From positions 2,140,813 through 2,204,812 of the forward strand of contig NC_020054.1 of assembly GCF_000331105.1 (NCBI RefSeq): a stretch of DNA of 64,000 nucleotides. Reading direction: 5' to 3'. Numbering within the stretch: position 1 is the stretch's first letter; every line of letters begins with the position of its first letter. Origin of the DNA: Fibrella aestuarina BUZ 2 (GTDB lineage Bacteria; Bacteroidota; Bacteroidia; Cytophagales; Spirosomataceae). The notes below the pieces were generated by a model. The model had not been told where the DNA came from. It searched no databases and saw nothing but the letters and a program-made list of their open reading frames with translations. Made by a program: the position numbers and the translations under genes. Below are positions 14,500 to 19,605 of this stretch, piece by piece.

Positions 14500-14510
14500 C
14501 ACCCGCAATG

Positions 14511-14583
<73 letters not shown>

Positions 14584-14603
14584 CTAATAGCAGTATTTTA
14601 AGT

Positions 14604-14637
14604 CACAAGGCCCAAACCGAAAGGTTTGGGCCTTGTG
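14604..14637 (+). terminator. Strong hairpin with GAAA loop just inside attL
   Basis: Perfect 15-bp arms (CACAAGGCCCAAACC and complement) close a GAAA tetraloop, 21 nt after the tRNA. It probably ends tRNA transcription in the integrated state and belongs to the element, because the likely original terminator now lies beyond attR. Confidence 0.7.
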
Positions 14638-14676
14638 CGTTTGTACTATTCCAACCACCGTAATTTTAACTCTAAA

Positions 14677-14927
14677 ATGGCACTACTACCGACCATTATA
14701 GACGATCTAACAGAGTATCTTGAACGGAAACAGGCGTATCTAAGGCCCGACAGCTACAAAGTGTATAGATACTTTGGCGTAGAGTTTACCGCGTTCCTTC
14801 AACAAAGCGGCCTTACTGATCTACCAACCAAAAAGTTTAAACCGGCCAACTGCGAACAATACAAACAGTACATACTGAAACATCATAAAGACCCCTGTAC
14901 GCGAAACAATAAAATTGGTATGCTTAA
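14677..14927 (+). pseudogene. Tyrosine integrase, 5' fragment (interrupted)
   Basis: This is the N-terminal 84 codons of a tyrosine recombinase, starting at the ATG at 14677 (MALLPTIIDDLTEYLERKQ). It is the core-binding (SAM-like) domain, which contacts attachment-site DNA. An 862-bp IS5-family element starts at 14928. Joining 14927 directly to 15793 restores one open frame of 300 residues. Read through the insertion sequence, the frame ends at 14964 with a few foreign residues. The fragment lacks all catalytic residues and should be inactive alone. Confidence 0.85.
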
Positions 14928-15789
14928 GAGCGTGTTGGGGAATTATGTTTGGTGTTGGACTTGAATGCGCTGCAACATAATCTGGATGTTGGCTAGATAC
15001 AGCCAGTTGACCGAATAAGATACCGTGTATTCGTAATCTTTGACGATCCGGCGGAAAAAATTCGTCCAGCCAATGCTTCGCTCGACGACCCAGCGCCTGG
15101 CAACCGGCACAAAGCCCCGCGCCGATTCAGGCCGCGAGGCTTTCGCAAAGTCGATGCCCCACCCGGCTAGATTCTTAGCAAACACGCCGTTGTAGGCCTG
15201 ATCGCCAAAGATCTTTTCTAACCGCTCCTCGCACCGCCACAACATGCTGACAATGAGTGGTACAGCTAGGGCGCCGTCGTGACCATTAGCGGCATCTGCA
15301 TCAGCGACCCACAACCGCCCTTGTGTATCCACCACATAGGTACGCTTGCGGCCATTGACCAGTTTATGGCAGTCTTTTCCTCGGTGTTCAGCGATCATAG
15401 GGCTTAATTTAACTGACTGTGTGTCAATACACAGAACTGAAGGCAGTGGATCCCGACCCGCTTGCTGACGGTCGAGTTGATTGACTGCTGCGTTGATCCG
15501 CTCGAACAAATCCGCCTTCTTCCACTGGTCAAAGTAGTAGTAAACGGCTTGCCAATGCGGCCAAGTAGGCGGGAGATTACGCCACTGACAACCGGTCCGC
15601 AACAGCCAGAAAATGCAATCCAAAATCTGGCGCAGGTCATGTTTGCGCTTGCGTTGCAGGTTGAAAAAAGGCGAAATTGCCGCCCACTGGTAGTCAGTCA
15701 GTGGTGTCCACTGAGGAGTCATCGTTTGTAAGCTTGGTCGCTACAAAGTTGACCTGACTACCAGCCTTTTGCTATTTCCCAACACGCTC
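14928..15789 (-). mobile_element. IS5-family insertion sequence (862 bp)
   Basis: Terminal inverted repeats begin GAGCGTGTTGGG at both ends, with 15 of the first 16 bases matching. The element is flanked by a TAA direct repeat (14925-14927 and 15790-15792), the 3-bp TNA duplication expected of the IS1031-type branch of the IS5 family. It contains one transposase gene on the minus strand. The insertion splits the integrase gene. Confidence 0.9.
14943..15722 (-). CDS. IS5-family DDE transposase
   Basis: This 259-residue transposase is encoded by a single uninterrupted frame. The N-terminal domain (about 1-75) has LTDYQWAAISPFF and LRTGCQWRNLP, typical of IS5/IS1031 enzymes. The DDE catalytic residues are visible as IDTQSVK (first D), IFGDQAYNG (second D) and ERSIGWTNFFRRI followed by KDYE (E region). 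It fills nearly the whole insertion sequence, stopping 15 bp from the left end. No frameshift is present, so the copy looks recent and may be active. Confidence 0.93.
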   Translation of the reverse strand: MTPQWTPLTDYQWAAISPFFNLQRKRKHDLRQILDCIFWLLRTGCQWRNLPPTWPHWQAVYYYFDQWKKADLFERINAAVNQLDRQQAGRDPLPSVLCIDTQSVKLSPMIAEHRGKDCHKLVNGRKRTYVVDTQGRLWVADADAANGHDGALAVPLIVSMLWRCEERLEKIFGDQAYNGVFAKNLAGWGIDFAKASRPESARGFVPVARRWVVERSIGWTNFFRRIVKDYEYTVSYSVNWLYLANIQIMLQRIQVQHQT

Positions 15790-15792
15790 TAA

Positions 15793-16444
15793 AACGTTCT
15801 GCAACTTTCTGACAGACGAACCCGATTTTGAACGTTTCGACGTTAGCCCGGCCCGGCGTATTAAGTTCGTGCCAACTCAAGAAAGCAATTTGCACGAACC
15901 ATACACCGACGAACAGGTGAGTTTGATCTTTGGGAAAGTTATTGAGCGGCAGGATTATTACCTGTTATTGTTTATCTACTTCATTCATTACACATTCAGT
16001 AGGCCGGGCAAAGAAGTAAGATTGATGAAGGTTGGAGACCTAAAACCTAACGCGGTGGTAATACCCGCCCAGCACTCCAAGAACAGGCGCGTTAAAAGCC
16101 CAACGCTAACCAAACCCATACAAGAACTGATTGACTTTTTAGGGGTTCGGAACTACGCTAACCACTTCTATATTTTTGGCTCGGAAGGAACGCCCGGCCT
16201 TATACCTGTGGGGAAAGGATGCTACTACCACCGACACAAAAAGATTCTTGACGAATTGGGCATAATTGGCAAATACACGCTCTACGGATGGAAACACAGC
16301 GGTAATATCAGAGCGATACAGCTAGGAGTAACAGATGCCAGTTTGCAACTACAGAACGGCTTTACAGAGCGCCGAACATTAGAGATTTACCGGCGCAAGC
16401 TGTCAGCTTATTATAACAATGAGATAGCTGAAAAATTTGTATAA
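15793..16444 (+). pseudogene. Tyrosine integrase, 3' fragment (interrupted)
   Basis: This is the catalytic part of the integrase split by the insertion sequence, corresponding to about residues 85-300 of the original protein. Visible active-site elements are an Arg in YTFSRPGKEVRL, a His-x-x-x-x-Arg-like box in YGWKHSGNIRAI, and the nucleophile Tyr in LEIYRRK (about residue 283 of 300). From an internal ATG at 15869 a 191-residue protein could still be made, but it would lack the DNA-binding N-terminus. The lipoprotein gene starts 41 bp downstream. Confidence 0.85.
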
Positions 16445-16484
16445 TTTATTTCTAACCTTTTTGTTAGTAAAAAAATCAACCACC

Positions 16485-16919
16485 ATGAAACTAACAAAAT
16501 CCCTTTTCTCCCTTGCCCTCATATCCCTTGCGGTAGCGGCTTGTAAATCGACTGACCCTGACCCGCGCACGCAATACGTAGGCACCTACAAAATGGCTTT
16601 TACAGATGTGCTACAGAACAGATCAAGCGGCGCAACAGCCAACTATCTAAGTACCGGCACCCTAAACGTAAAATTAGGCGCTACACAGGCCGAACTAATA
16701 CTGACTGAACGTAGTACCTACCCTGTGCAGGTATCTGGCAACACATTCACGATTCCGGCCTTTATAGACATACAGAGCATTGCAGGTAGTAGCGTAGCGT
16801 TCACGGTCTCCGGCACTGGCAGTTTCAGCCCCAACGGCATAACGGTAACATATACCGGAATGTCAACTGTAAACAACCAAGCTATTCAGTTCAGCACAAC
16901 CGGCACAGGAACCAAATGA
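16485..16919 (+). CDS. Small lipoprotein carried by the element
   Basis: This 144-residue protein has a signal sequence MKLTKSLFSLALISLAVAAC with a lipobox ending at Cys20, followed by KSTDPDP. The rest is a beta-rich sandwich with many Thr, Ser and Gly (VGTYKMAF, TGTLNVKLG, ITVTYTGMS), resembling lipocalin-like or DUF-type lipoproteins of Bacteroidota. The start at 16485 was chosen because it gives a proper signal peptide. It directly follows the integrase and may share its transcript. Its function is unknown. An envelope role such as surface exclusion is conceivable but not supported. Confidence 0.65.
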   Translation: MKLTKSLFSLALISLAVAACKSTDPDPRTQYVGTYKMAFTDVLQNRSSGATANYLSTGTLNVKLGATQAELILTERSTYPVQVSGNTFTIPAFIDIQSIAGSSVAFTVSGTGSFSPNGITVTYTGMSTVNNQAIQFSTTGTGTK

Positions 16920-17087
16920 TTAACGGTTGAACGGTACTTACTAATAAATCGGTGGAAAGTTGTTATTGGTGTAGCCAATCTGTGTGAATAAATAATTTGT
17001 CGGAGATAAATACATCCAATTAAAAAATGATGCTTATTTGTAACCCTAAGATACAAATTGTGAACTGATTTTTATTTGTAAAGAGAA

Positions 17088-17963
17088 ATGACTAACACCG
17101 ACAAAAAGACAACTTTCCACTTGTTCAGATACCAAATAGTGCCAAAGAGTCAGCATAAAATGAATCTTTTTGATAGAACTTATACGCCAGAAGAATTAAA
17201 AGCGATTAAGAATAGAATATTTGCGGAAATTATAGCAACTAAACAATATTTTGCCAGCCTTACAAGAAAACAACTTTATCATAAATTTATTTATCTTGAT
17301 GGTAAGGATGTTTTTGCATTTCAACTTGGAACTAGAAAAACTGTTGTTTTACAAAATGAAGAATTTAATATTAAGTATGAACAAAATCACCCCAATGTAT
17401 TAATAATTATTGACAACAGGCCACACGTACAAAAGATTGCGATAAGTGTAAATGAAGAAGCTTTTTCATCTCCTCAAGTTGTAGCTAATATTTTGCAACT
17501 AAATTTTAATGTTTCACTAGATAAATACAGTTTACAGATTTCTGTCAATCCAATATTAGACCGAAGGGATTTCTGGCAACTAATAAAAAGCTATGAAGAT
17601 AGAATAACGTCACTAAGGTTTGAGATTATTAAACCAAACATGACTAATATTTCTAATTCTCTATCAGAGGGATTAAAAGAATTGGTCACAGCAACAAACA
17701 GCTTTAAAACACGACTTGATTTAAATGCTCCTGAAAGAGCAACCTTAGAAAACCTAAATGAAAAAAACATAGCTTTAGCGGGTATTGCTGATTATTCTAT
17801 CGAAGGCGGAAGCACAGAAATAAGTCTTAAAGTGAAAGGGCTAAGGAGTTATATAAAAACGGATGGAACTGTGCGTAAGGTTTCTATAGACGAAGCTGAA
17901 ATAAAAGGAACGCCCGATAAAATTTCAACAATCTTTCAAAAAATACTTAGCAATGGAGATTAA
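17088..17963 (+). CDS. Uncharacterised 291-residue protein, first gene of AT-rich cargo operon
   Basis: I do not recognise a named family. The protein is soluble, with mixed alpha/beta character and no signal peptide. It opens with TTFHLFRYQIVPKSQHKMNLF, has a helical part (EELKAIKNRIFAEIIATKQYF), a central beta-rich core (VLIIIDNRPHVQKIAISVN), a FEIIKPNMTNIS segment and a basic/acidic beta C-terminus. G+C is far below the chromosome. A purine-rich AAAGAGAA precedes the ATG. Its 3' end overlaps the membrane-protein gene by 11 bp, so the two proteins probably act together. A soluble protein coupled to a small membrane protein on a tRNA-borne element resembles two-gene phage-defence or toxin-immunity modules, but that is inference from context only. 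Confidence 0.6.
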   Translation: MTNTDKKTTFHLFRYQIVPKSQHKMNLFDRTYTPEELKAIKNRIFAEIIATKQYFASLTRKQLYHKFIYLDGKDVFAFQLGTRKTVVLQNEEFNIKYEQNHPNVLIIIDNRPHVQKIAISVNEEAFSSPQVVANILQLNFNVSLDKYSLQISVNPILDRRDFWQLIKSYEDRITSLRFEIIKPNMTNISNSLSEGLKELVTATNSFKTRLDLNAPERATLENLNEKNIALAGIADYSIEGGSTEISLKVKGLRSYIKTDGTVRKVSIDEAEIKGTPDKISTIFQKILSNGD

Positions 17964-18408
17964 GATTTACAAAATCGGAGCGTACATAGGCTTGTCCGTA
18001 ATTCTAAATTTTATCTCAAACTATTTGGAAAGTGATTACCTTATAAATTTTTTGAAGGATAAAATTGTAGAACTGTTAATTACACTGATGGCAATTAACA
18101 CCGCCACATCAAGTATTATTGTCTCAAAAATTGAAGAAATATCAAAAAAGTATAGGGTGAACTTAGACCCTTCAATAAAAGAGGTAAAGAGTTCTACAAT
18201 ACTTCAAATATGGCTCGTGGTTTTTGCAGTAATGACGCTTATACTATATAAAAGCAAAGTAATTATTGCACACTTTCCAGATACATACGAAAGTTGTCTC
18301 AATATCACGCTACTCACTATATTCATATCTGCCATAGACATACTAAGGGATACAGGGTTAGCAATTTTTATAATTAATGAAAAAACTTCAAAAAAAGAAA
18401 ACGCTTGA
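17953..18408 (+). CDS. Small integral membrane protein, second gene of AT-rich cargo operon
   Basis: This 151-residue protein has about four hydrophobic segments: residues 8-22 (IGAYIGLSVILNFIS), 36-55 (VELLITLMAINTATSSIIVS), 83-101 (ILQIWLVVFAVMTLILYKS) and 115-140 (CLNITLLTIFISAIDILRD). A charged loop KIEEISKKYRVNLDPSIKEVK separates the pairs. The start ATG lies inside the last codons of the upstream gene (11-bp overlap), which indicates translational coupling. It could be a membrane effector controlled by the soluble partner; nothing in the sequence proves this. I know no family name for it. Confidence 0.6.
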   Translation: MEIKIYKIGAYIGLSVILNFISNYLESDYLINFLKDKIVELLITLMAINTATSSIIVSKIEEISKKYRVNLDPSIKEVKSSTILQIWLVVFAVMTLILYKSKVIIAHFPDTYESCLNITLLTIFISAIDILRDTGLAIFIINEKTSKKENA

Positions 18409-18435
18409 ACTTCATAAACATAAATATTACTCACA

Positions 18436-18468
18436 AAAAACCCCTACGGCAATGCCATAGGGGTTTTT
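18436..18468. terminator. Bidirectional terminator between convergent cargo operons
   Basis: AAAAACCCCTACGGCA and TGCCATAGGGGTTTTT form a 16-bp stem with one mismatch and a one-base loop, with A and T runs on the two sides. It lies 27 bp after the membrane-protein gene and 18 bp before the end of the opposing operon, so it can serve both. Confidence 0.8.
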
Positions 18469-18485
18469 AATTTCCAACCTGAAAA

Positions 18486-18659
18486 TTAAGACTGTTGCCG
18501 TTCGCGGCGCTTTTCTTTGATGTGGTCTAACAGATCGTCAAAAAGATCATCTGCCAGATTGATAAGGAAATCAACCAGCTTGTTAAGAAACCAATGTTTG
18601 CGTTTCGCTGGCTGTGGTACTTCGTTCAAGATTTGTTCTTTGTTATGCATGGTGAACAT
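18486..18659 (-). CDS. 57-residue charged amphipathic protein coupled to the JAMM-like gene
   Basis: This small gene begins MFTMHNKEQ, runs through KHWFLNKLVDFLINLADD and ends KEKRRERQQS. The start ATG overlaps the stop of the upstream JAMM-like gene as TAATG, the classic sign of translational coupling, which is the main reason to believe it is real. A second in-frame ATG lies three codons in. The middle is an amphipathic helix with Leu/Ile and Asp, and the tail is strongly basic and acidic, so it could bind a membrane or another protein. No family is recognised. A terminator lies just downstream. Confidence 0.55.
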   Translation of the reverse strand: MFTMHNKEQILNEVPQPAKRKHWFLNKLVDFLINLADDLFDDLLDHIKEKRRERQQS

Positions 18660-19408
18660 TAGTTGAAGTGAATCAATAAACTACCGTCTGCCTGATTGAC
18701 ATAATCAGGACGCTTTCTTTCCTCGTTTAAATAGACCAACGCGGCCAACAAAACGAACCAACGGAACGCCCCTAATCCTAGCTTTTTAAGGCCTAATAGA
18801 ACCACCAAAATAGCGCCAGCACCGAACAAAAAAATCTTTTCCGATACCAGCAAAGCGGCGCGGCTGATAGGGCTTATAAAGCCATTGTACAGATAGAATC
18901 GTATGCTTTGCCCGGCCCTATCATTGGCGCTCAATAAAGCGTCCGGCAAAACCAAATTATACCCATCTACAGCCAGCGGTAAAAAACTGTTGTGCCTGTC
19001 TGTGTCGCTAGTACGTTGAAAGAAATTAAGAGACTGTACATCATACAATGAATTACCTGATTGTACGGGGTGAGAATGCCAGCGCAAAGGAAAACCGCCG
19101 GAACGCAAGCAATCCTGTATTACCGCCCGGTAACGTTCGCCGTTTGGGCTATATGCCAGGTTAGCCCGTTCGGGTGGTAATTGGTTGGCAATTTCGACAA
19201 CCTGAGAAACAATTAACAGGCGCTTTGTAGGGTCAGGATAGGCATACAAAAACCCGCCTGTTTCAGCCGATTTATTATACAGTGTAGCCAGCGTAGCTAA
19301 CACGTTGCCCGTTATCAGAATATCTAAGGGCGTTTGTAGAATATAGGTTTCCCGGCCCTCTGTTACGATAGGCCGGAAAAAACCTAATTCGATTAGTTGC
19401 TTAACCAT
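18659..19408 (-). CDS. JAMM/MPN-like protein with C-terminal membrane anchor
   Basis: This 249-residue protein shows the elements of a JAB/JAMM metalloprotease domain: Glu49 in the ETGGFLY motif, and HSH at 111-113 followed by Ser120 and Asp123 (HSHPVQSGNSLYD). The usual spacing HxH-x7-S-x2-D is here x6, one residue shorter. Such enzymes cut isopeptide or peptide bonds, often removing ubiquitin-like proteins. Two hydrophobic segments near residues 187-220 (FLFGAGAILVVLLGL, FRWFVLLAALVYL) would anchor it. The start at 19408 overlaps the stop of a short upstream frame (ATGGTTAA), and its stop overlaps the next gene, so it is the middle of a coupled series. No E1, E2 or ubiquitin-like partner is present. 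The family call is good; activity is uncertain. Confidence 0.65.
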   Translation of the reverse strand: MVKQLIELGFFRPIVTEGRETYILQTPLDILITGNVLATLATLYNKSAETGGFLYAYPDPTKRLLIVSQVVEIANQLPPERANLAYSPNGERYRAVIQDCLRSGGFPLRWHSHPVQSGNSLYDVQSLNFFQRTSDTDRHNSFLPLAVDGYNLVLPDALLSANDRAGQSIRFYLYNGFISPISRAALLVSEKIFLFGAGAILVVLLGLKKLGLGAFRWFVLLAALVYLNEERKRPDYVNQADGSLLIHFN

Positions 19409-19541
19409 TTTTACGCTGCAAAAAAATGATTGCCAGCACTGCCAATACAACGAATACCCAAACCCGGTTTTGTGGGATTGGTGCCGCGTTGAAATTGGCT
19501 TCATCGGTTCTTATAATTAGGGCGTTACGCCCTTGCCGCTG
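19401..19541 (-). pseudogene. Truncated frame with one transmembrane helix at the element's right end
   Basis: A 46-codon open frame without any ATG, GTG or TTG runs from a stop at 19542-19544 to the TAA at 19401-19403. It ends with QNRVWVFVVLAVLAIIFLQRKNG, a convincing single transmembrane helix with a basic tail. Its stop overlaps the start of the JAMM-like gene. It looks like the 3' end of a membrane-protein gene whose 5' part was lost at the attR boundary 10 bp away. A start at a rare codon such as ATT is the alternative. Confidence 0.45.
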
Positions 19542-19550
19542 TTAGTGAGA

Positions 19551-19567
19551 AATCCGATATTCTCCAC
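19551..19567 (+). repeat. attR, 17-bp direct repeat
   Basis: AATCCGATATTCTCCAC duplicates the tRNA-Ala 3' end without the rest of a tRNA. A small palindrome GGGCGTTACGCCC (19520-19532) lies just inside and could be an arm site. The repeat marks the right boundary of the element. Confidence 0.88.
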
Positions 19568-19570
19568 AAC

Positions 19571-19605
19571 AAAGCCGCCGATCGATCTGATCGGCGGCTT
19601 TTTCG
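19571..19605 (+). terminator. Original tRNA-Ala terminator displaced by the element
   Basis: AAAGCCGCCGATC and its complement form a 13-bp stem around a 5-nt loop, followed by a T run (CTTTTTCG). It begins 3 nt after attR. Before integration it would have stood just behind tRNA-Ala and served as its terminator. Confidence 0.75.

What the first reader, a model, noticed from the sequence alone, without database searches (positions are those of the whole stretch)
14568..19567. 5-kb satellite-like integrative element in tRNA-Ala(GGC)
Perfect 17-bp repeats flank a block with a tyrosine integrase beside the tRNA, distinct base composition and a displaced tRNA terminator. It has no transfer, replication or capsid genes, so it would need a helper. 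Seen: repeats, integrase, composition. Known: tRNA 3' ends are common integrase targets. Inferred: mobility and helper dependence.
Basis: partly seen in the sequence, partly recalled or inferred. Interest (0 to 1): 0.75.

Follow-up and report, generated by a model that had tools for sequence, protein, structure and literature searches.

The report
Shrunken virus-like element in tRNA-Ala
A 5-kb piece of foreign DNA sits in an alanine tRNA gene of a bacterium; it looks like the cut-down, now immobilised relative of 16-20-kb virus-like elements that use the same tRNA in related bacteria and that our searches did not tie to a described virus family.

Summary
In detail: an exact 17-bp repeat of the tRNA-Ala(GGC) 3' end bounds 14585-19567, and 4 of 4 same-genus genomes show the empty site. 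Six related genomes carry 16.2-19.8-kb elements at the same tRNA, bounded by the same 15-bp core, with the same ends (integrase, often a lipoprotein, a variable cargo slot, a membrane-anchored JAMM protein) plus replication genes and a block of about 15 small, often membrane-anchored proteins including two lytic transglycosylases. The window element keeps both termini, the split integrase, the lipoprotein, a two-gene cargo (p291+p151) and the JAMM gene, and lacks the rest. Best reading: an internally deleted, IS-inactivated derivative of this family. Past helper dependence is possible, not shown; no full-length relative was found in the same genome. The parent family is virus-like, but no capsid, terminase or packaging ATPase was recognised among the 15 block proteins scanned, and searches with its JAMM protein found nothing in INPHARED, PLSDB or IMG/VR. 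Some relatives hold AbiJ-, DUF4062- or HEPN-type genes in the cargo slot; p291/p151 is of unknown function.

The parts
14510..14584 (+). tRNA-Ala(GGC), integration target; its 3' end lies in the repeat
   Evidence: ARAGORN
14568..14584 (+). attL, left copy of the 17-bp direct repeat (15-bp core shared with relatives)
14604..14637 (+). terminator-like hairpin supplied by the element just after the tRNA (15 pairs)
14677..14927 (+). tyrosine integrase, N-terminal piece (SAM-like domain, just under the Pfam cut-off), cut by the IS
   Evidence: PF13102 E 5.6e-4 (20.7 bits, cut-off 22.3); tblastn to integrases of 6 relatives, 40-56% identity
14928..15789 (.). IS5-family insertion sequence, 862 bp, inverted ends matching at 15 of the first 16 bases, target duplication TAA; no other copy found in the genome
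14943..15722 (-). IS5-family transposase, 259 aa
   Evidence: NCBIfam NF033580 1.3e-46; Pfam DUF4096 7.2e-24
15790..16444 (+). tyrosine integrase, C-terminal piece, open frame
   Evidence: 58-63% identity to integrases at the same tRNA in 6 genomes and 48% to G163; 15 of 199 other family genomes match at E<=1e-30; no Pfam hit of its own
16485..16919 (+). small lipoprotein (LAVAAC lipobox read by eye); related small lipoproteins follow the integrase in several relatives
17088..17963 (+). cargo p291, AT-rich, no Pfam/PADLOC family
17953..18408 (+). cargo p151, three hydrophobic segments; overlaps p291; a related pair is found in G270
18436..18468 (.). hairpin with A and T runs on its two sides between the convergent cargo and JAMM units
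   Evidence: sequence
18486..18659 (-). 57-aa ORF, no family hit
18659..19408 (-). JAMM/MPN-fold protein with hydrophobic C-terminal region (start most likely at 19408, residue 33 of the listed ORF); conserved in the family
19401..19541 (-). 46-codon open frame ending in a hydrophobic segment and RKNG, overlapping the JAMM start by 8 bp; possibly the 3' stump of a deleted upstream gene (homology not above control)
19519..19539 (+). right-end hairpin AGGGCGTTACGCCCT plus TGCCGC, as near attR in some relatives
19551..19567 (+). attR, right copy of the 17-bp repeat
19571..19603 (+). native tRNA terminator, displaced by the element

Best explanation
The 4,983-bp insert is an internally deleted, now immobilised member of a family of 16-20-kb tRNA-integrating, virus-like elements. 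A tyrosine integrase recombined a circular form at the 15-17-bp 3' end of tRNA-Ala(GGC), rebuilding the tRNA and adding a terminator (site and repeats shown; the circular form is inferred). In the line leading to this genome the long replication and particle block between the JAMM gene and the right end was lost, leaving both termini, integrase, lipoprotein, a variable cargo slot and the JAMM gene (shown by comparison; whether before or after integration here is not known). Later an IS5-family element entered the integrase gene with a TAA duplication; both integrase pieces are still open frames, so this is probably recent (inferred). What may still act is the AT-rich cargo pair p291+p151, sitting where some relatives keep defence-type genes; a defence role is inference only.
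For: att repeats and empty sites. Six genomes (G169, G148, G187, G172, G142, G046) have full elements at tRNA-Ala(GGC), each closed by the 15-bp core 16.2-19.8 kb from the tRNA, with integrase and JAMM gene in the same places. With G142 as reference, 13-15 of the 15 block genes A-O are found in each of 7 other genomes, two of which (G163, G184) have the element at another site or split (in G169 the second transglycosylase is counted by position). Of these block genes only the JAMM gene is in the window. The window right end passes a strict hairpin + [CT]CGC rule that 4 of 7 relatives' right ends and 0.5% of 20,000 random 70-mers pass. IS ends and TAA duplication. Two other genomes hold different remnants at the same tRNA: G196 with partial JAMM matches and no integrase match at 1e-30, G088 with a broken integrase and no JAMM match. 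No full-length relative found in the own genome.
Against: The stump next to the JAMM gene, which should show the deletion junction, is not recognisably homologous to a block gene (best score 47; 2 of 50 shuffles score higher). Three of 7 relatives' right ends (and G002) fail the strict end rule. The JAMM frame and its metal-site residues, p291 and p151 are intact, which a pure ruin need not show. The JAMM branch is long (1.44 against a median of 0.24) while the integrase piece is not flagged, so this could be an old separate small lineage rather than a fresh deletion.
Confidence: 0.78

Rival explanations
1. A helper-dependent satellite: a minimal element that kept only its ends, integrase, cargo and JAMM gene and moved in particles made by a full-length relative, until the IS broke its integrase.
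For: Both termini including the right-end motif are kept; JAMM, p291 and p151 frames intact; about 4.1 kb without the IS, roughly a quarter of the full elements; the JAMM branch is long and has no starred place.
Against: No second example of the small form found: 10 of 200 family genomes have a JAMM match, the own one included; 8 of the 9 others carry the block and the ninth (G196) is a remnant. No full-length relative found in the own genome. No helper-control gene recognised.
Confidence: 0.15
2. An ordinary genomic island or mobilizable element with a tyrosine integrase, unrelated to viruses.
For: No capsid, terminase or portal gene recognised in the window or among the 15 block proteins of the reference element.
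Against: No relaxase or transfer gene in the window ORFs scanned; relatives carry integrase, primase and VapE-type helicase or an AAA/DnaB-like protein, HTH-like gene, two lytic transglycosylases and many small membrane proteins in one fixed order, a virus-like layout.
Confidence: 0.07

Closest known systems
Temperate lipid-containing phages of Bacteroidota (FLiP, PhiCjT23) and other double jelly-roll (DJR) proviruses
   Same: Small genomes; PhiCjT23 is temperate with related prophages in Flavobacterium (passages of PMC9719478); FLiP and the Odin group also lack a packaging ATPase (passages of PMC5894146). Many small membrane proteins in such phages: recalled.
   Different: FLiP-group genomes share a DJR capsid protein and an M13-like Rep; here no capsid protein was recognised, the genes include primase/VapE or AAA and a tyrosine integrase, and the size is 16-20 kb against 7.6 kb of PhiCjT23. 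No direct sequence comparison with FLiP was run apart from the INPHARED search with two proteins.
Pleomorphic membrane-vesicle viruses (Plasmaviridae, Pleolipoviridae)
   Same: Enveloped, temperate or with proviruses, virions like membrane vesicles (listing and starts of abstracts only); lack of a capsid and anchored spikes: recalled.
   Different: No sequence link tested; host and gene set differ.
Phage satellites (P4, PICI) and their cargo hot spots
   Same: tRNA or site-specific integration, small size, cargo with defence-type genes (recalled; PMC11389934 seen in listing only).
   Different: No satellite hallmark gene seen; integrase broken; looks like a cut-down form of its own family.
JAMM/MPN metalloproteases (PfJAMM1, Cap3, Rpn11)
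   Same: Predicted fold of the window protein and conserved E, H-x-H, D residues.
   Different: Carries a hydrophobic C-terminal region and lies in a virus-like element; no ubiquitin-like, E1 or E2 partner was recognised among the window's element ORFs.

Membership tests
tRNA-Ala-integrating element family defined here | 15-bp core of the tRNA 3' end at both ends | tested here: met
tRNA-Ala-integrating element family defined here | Related tyrosine integrase directly after the tRNA | tested here: met
   58-63% identity over the second piece, same clade as G142/G172/G187 (98/98), but split by an IS
tRNA-Ala-integrating element family defined here | JAMM protein gene in opposite orientation | tested here: met
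   41-45% identity in A1, fold
tRNA-Ala-integrating element family defined here | Replication genes and block A-N | tested here: not met
   tblastn of block and replication proteins against the window: only JAMM gene and integrase pieces found; hence 'derivative', not full member
Phage satellite (PICI, P4 and the like) | Mobilised and packaged by a helper | not testable with these tools
   needs induction and particle sequencing
Phage satellite (PICI, P4 and the like) | Helper resident or known | tested here: inconclusive
   none found in the own genome; candidates exist in other genomes
[quoted passage not shown]
   no Pfam or PHROG capsid hit among the 15 block proteins of G142; K149 model is a cupin/jelly-roll-like sandwich with no clear match
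IS5 family (the inserted IS) | IS5-type DDE transposase, inverted ends, short TNA target duplication | tested here: met
   (the TNA rule is recalled)
JAMM/MPN metalloprotease | MPN fold with E, HxH, D metal site | tested here: met
   no Pfam hit; activity not tested

The most novel reading that the evidence does not exclude
The window element is a relic of an undescribed, widespread family of temperate viruses of Spirosomataceae-type bacteria that build a membrane particle without any recognised capsid or packaging enzyme: about fifteen small, often membrane-anchored proteins, anchored peptidoglycan hydrolases, an anchored SGNH-type protein and an anchored JAMM protease, with a slot for defence genes next to the integrase. 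The relic would be a host-retained defence cassette left after loss of the virus genes.
Probability: 0.45. Interest if true: 0.85.

Novelty: new variant of a known kind. Interest (0 to 1): 0.58.

Why it matters
The small element is ordinary as a tRNA insert, but it led to a coherent family of integrated, virus-like elements that the searches made here did not find under a known name. If they make particles, they could be a new lineage of membrane-bearing bacterial viruses with a JAMM protease among their parts. The family also offers a natural series, from full element to remnant at one tRNA, to study how cargo outlives the element that brought it.

Tried and rejected
Whole-genome copy: no other copy of the element or IS found. 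JAMM profile against PDB sequences found nothing useful; the fold came from the model. K149 as capsid: mean pLDDT 73.6 from 7 sequences; best PDB rows by Z (7.6) are gamma-carboxylase chains, then complement, cupins and, lower, picornavirus capsid chains; no Foldseek row in PDB or the viral library reaches E 0.001: undecided. Stump next to the JAMM gene: best score 47 among 667 ORF ends, but 2 of 50 shuffles scored higher (48, 50), so no homology claimed. Right-end motif in strict form fails in 3 of 7 relatives (G169, G148, G184) and in G002. N421 is not specific: 191 of 200 family genomes have some match; 8 match at E below 1e-200. B152: 24 of 200 genomes at E<=1e-3 (the own genome at 8e-4, a 237-aa frame), 17 at E<=1e-6; of the 9 distant ones in that set 6 were opened and all 6 carry at least one further block gene. 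Viral contigs (pattern-limited scans): none confirmed for the JAMM gene, N421 and F198; the transglycosylase gave 128 relatives, 80 kept, of which one also matched a non-transglycosylase query (a collagen-like stretch of a G002 protein) and none a further block gene. INPHARED: JAMM and N421, no match; PLSDB: JAMM only, no match. One weak terminase-fragment hit of the AAA protein (PF22530, E 0.0082, below cut-off) was put aside; PHROGs place it with primase/helicases (2.6e-7). The 322-aa and 517-aa proteins of the G002 element have no clear PHROG (best 0.013). G320's two JAMM copies lie in a repeat-rich stretch without the block. G163's element has no tRNA in the 20-kb stretch and no convincing repeat (an 11-mer only). 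p291: no Pfam or PADLOC family; in its 8-row alignment only weak hits (Band_7 in 3 rows, best 0.0055; two others in one row each). Papers: the searches listed no description of this family that I recognised; only open-licence PMC papers are held. PMC5894146 and PMC9719478 were seen as passages, the rest as listings with starts of abstracts.
Full report
Observation. The window lies at G000:C2:2140813-2204812 of a 6.94-Mb genome in 2 contigs. tRNA-Ala(GGC) is at 14510-14584. The 17-mer AATCCGATATTCTCCAC stands at 14568-14584 and 19551-19567 and nowhere else on the + strand of the window. The insert 14585-19567 has GC 0.419 against 0.548 and 0.553 in the flanks; its cargo pair 0.314.

Empty site. 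All 5 genomes of the genus that were searched, the window's included, match the upstream gene and tRNA. In the 4 others tRNA-Ala(GGC) is followed, after a short stretch with a hairpin, by the NlpC/P60 gene (70-74% identity) that in the window begins after the right repeat; the DUF3299-like gene lies upstream, and no integrase or JAMM match is in those loci. The native terminator of the window is at 19571-19603; the element brings another at 14604-14637.

The integrase is broken. The first and second part of one integrase gene lie on either side of an 862-bp IS (14928-15789) whose ends match at 15 of 16 bases, with a TAA duplication and an IS5-family transposase (NCBIfam E 1.3e-46). Both pieces match, next to each other, single open frames in six relatives: 40-56% for the first and 58-63% for the second piece. 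The pieces were searched apart. No other copy of the IS was found in the genome.

The relatives. The window's 281-aa ORF has matches in 10 of 200 family genomes, the own one included. Stretches of 20 kb around the 9 others showed tRNA-Ala(GGC) in 7 of 9, an integrase related to the window's in 7 of 9 (6 of these beside the tRNA), and an NlpC/P60 gene on the other side of the tRNA in 7 of 9. In 6 genomes the 15-bp core recurs 16.2-19.8 kb from the tRNA. In G184 the integrase end sits at a tRNA-Ala at 3.97 Mb and the block with a right-end core at 5.54 Mb, so the element is split.

Gene order of the full element, from the tRNA: integrase; a small lipoprotein; variable cargo; then on the other strand, read from the right end: a short HTH-like gene facing the other way (family name read by eye; Pfam hits weak), primase plus VapE-like helicase (Pfam VapE 6.5e-37, CHC2 2.9e-12) or an AAA_25 protein (1.2e-12; PHROG primase/helicase 2.6e-7), then 15 small genes A to O. 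Among them: an N-anchored LEA_2 protein (B, 4.7e-7), C-anchored proteins with Lys/Arg-bearing tails (A, C, E, transglycosylase I; a hydropathy count finds a hydrophobic segment in 9 of the 15 G142 proteins), two SLT-type transglycosylases (I under the Pfam cut-off, L above; PHROG matches below 1e-36), an SGNH-type protein (N; Pfam SASA 0.035 only, the type read by eye) and the JAMM protein (O). With G142 as reference, 7 other genomes have 13 to 15 of the 15 by BLAST at 1e-3 (G169's second transglycosylase counted by position). All 15 were scanned against Pfam and PHROGs: apart from the transglycosylases and B, only weak hits (best D, phrog_25218 of unknown function, 0.0024). No terminase, portal, tail, capsid or packaging ATPase was recognised among them.

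What the window kept. tblastn of the block and replication proteins against the window finds only the JAMM gene and the two integrase pieces. The right end keeps a hairpin followed by TGCCGC, the hairpin ending 19 bases before the core; by a strict rule 4 of 7 relatives have such an end and 0.5% of 20,000 random 70-mers do. Three of 7 fail the rule. Between this end and the JAMM start lies a 46-codon frame with a hydrophobic end, overlapping the JAMM start by 8 bp. It looks like the stump of a lost upstream gene, but its likeness to block protein tails is not above shuffled controls. So the loss of the block is shown by comparison; the exact junction is not.

Cargo slot. Relatives carry there: AbiJ_NTD4+DUF7014 (G148), DUF6414 beside a small membrane protein and a SUKH gene (G187), DUF4062 (G172), a HEPN_Swt1 match under the cut-off (G196); the proteins of G163 and G184 have no Pfam match above cut-off. 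PADLOC matches: G148 1.5e-6, G196 8.3e-7, G184 9.3e-14 to candidate systems, G172 only a weak typeIV_DinG match (0.0021); none for the window pair or G187's pair. G142, G046 and G169 show no clear cargo ORF between lipoprotein and the opposite unit. The window has p291+p151. p291 has 6 relatives in the protein collection besides itself (44-47%); 2 of 389 other genomes of the order match, one weakly. In G270 a p291 and a p151 relative stand in the same order. Function unknown; defence is inferred from the slot and the arrangement only.

Other remnants at the same tRNA. G196: tRNA, lipoprotein, cargo, partial JAMM matches, no integrase match at 1e-30, no second core in the 20 kb. G088: tRNA, integrase match with a stop inside, lipoprotein, a 486-aa ORF, no JAMM match, no second core in the 20 kb. 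This pattern, different losses at one site with cargo-like genes left, favours decay.

Tree. The window's integrase piece groups with G142, G172 and G187 (98/98); its JAMM protein is a long branch (1.44, median 0.24) with no starred place. It seems to have changed faster than the integrase, which fits release from its former partners or an old separate small lineage.

Wider family. A tRNA-Pro(GGG) element of 16.3 kb with a 23-bp repeat lies in G002, a genus mate of the window. B152 relatives at E<=1e-6 are in 17 of 200 family genomes. G006, G007, G029, G040 and G075 carry further block genes beside it; G006 and G075 were listed in detail and show between them primase and helicase (G075), transglycosylase (G006), lysozyme-like (G075), SSB-like and spike-like ORFs, several with C-terminal hydrophobic ends (names without a match are read by eye). 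Their larger ORFs were not scanned for capsid families. So the parent family reaches beyond tRNA-Ala.

Virus or not. For: layout, peptidoglycan hydrolases, spike-like proteins, replication genes, att sites, variable cargo. Against: no capsid or packaging gene recognised, and no match in phage records for two proteins, in plasmids for one or in viral contigs for three; only the transglycosylase has viral relatives, and those contigs lack the other block genes. FLiP-group and Odin-group viruses also lack a packaging ATPase (passages of PMC5894146), so that absence alone does not speak against a virus. The K149 model is a jelly-roll or cupin-like sandwich, undecided.

Verdict. Observation confirmed; 'satellite' only partly supported. 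Best reading: an internally deleted, IS-inactivated derivative of a family of tRNA-integrating, virus-like elements for which I found no description, with cargo that may still serve the host.

Noticed in passing
L072 (G002:C28:8001-28000), tRNA-Pro at 18462-18536: A 16.3-kb relative of the full element sits at tRNA-Pro(GGG) with a 23-bp repeat in a genus mate of the window, so the family uses more than one tRNA.
   Followed up: partly
L074 (G184:C1:3960001-3980000) and L041/L032 (5.525-5.565 Mb): In S. endbachense the element is split: integrase end at one tRNA-Ala, block with right-end core about 1.6 Mb away, pointing to a chromosomal rearrangement.
   Followed up: partly
L076:9278-10859 (G270): p291 and p151 relatives stand together with further small genes in another genome of the order, a possible stand-alone gene cassette of unknown function.
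   Followed up: no
L034:12005-13006 and the ORF before it (G172); L035:10768-12825 (G142): Cargo slot of S. arboris holds a DUF4062 gene (Pfam) next to a second one alike by eye; G142 instead carries a 685-aa spike-like ORF (by eye) beside the JAMM gene.
   Followed up: no
L097/L098 (G320): Two 99% identical stretches with a distant JAMM-protein gene in a repeat-rich genome of another family, without the virus-like block.
   Followed up: partly
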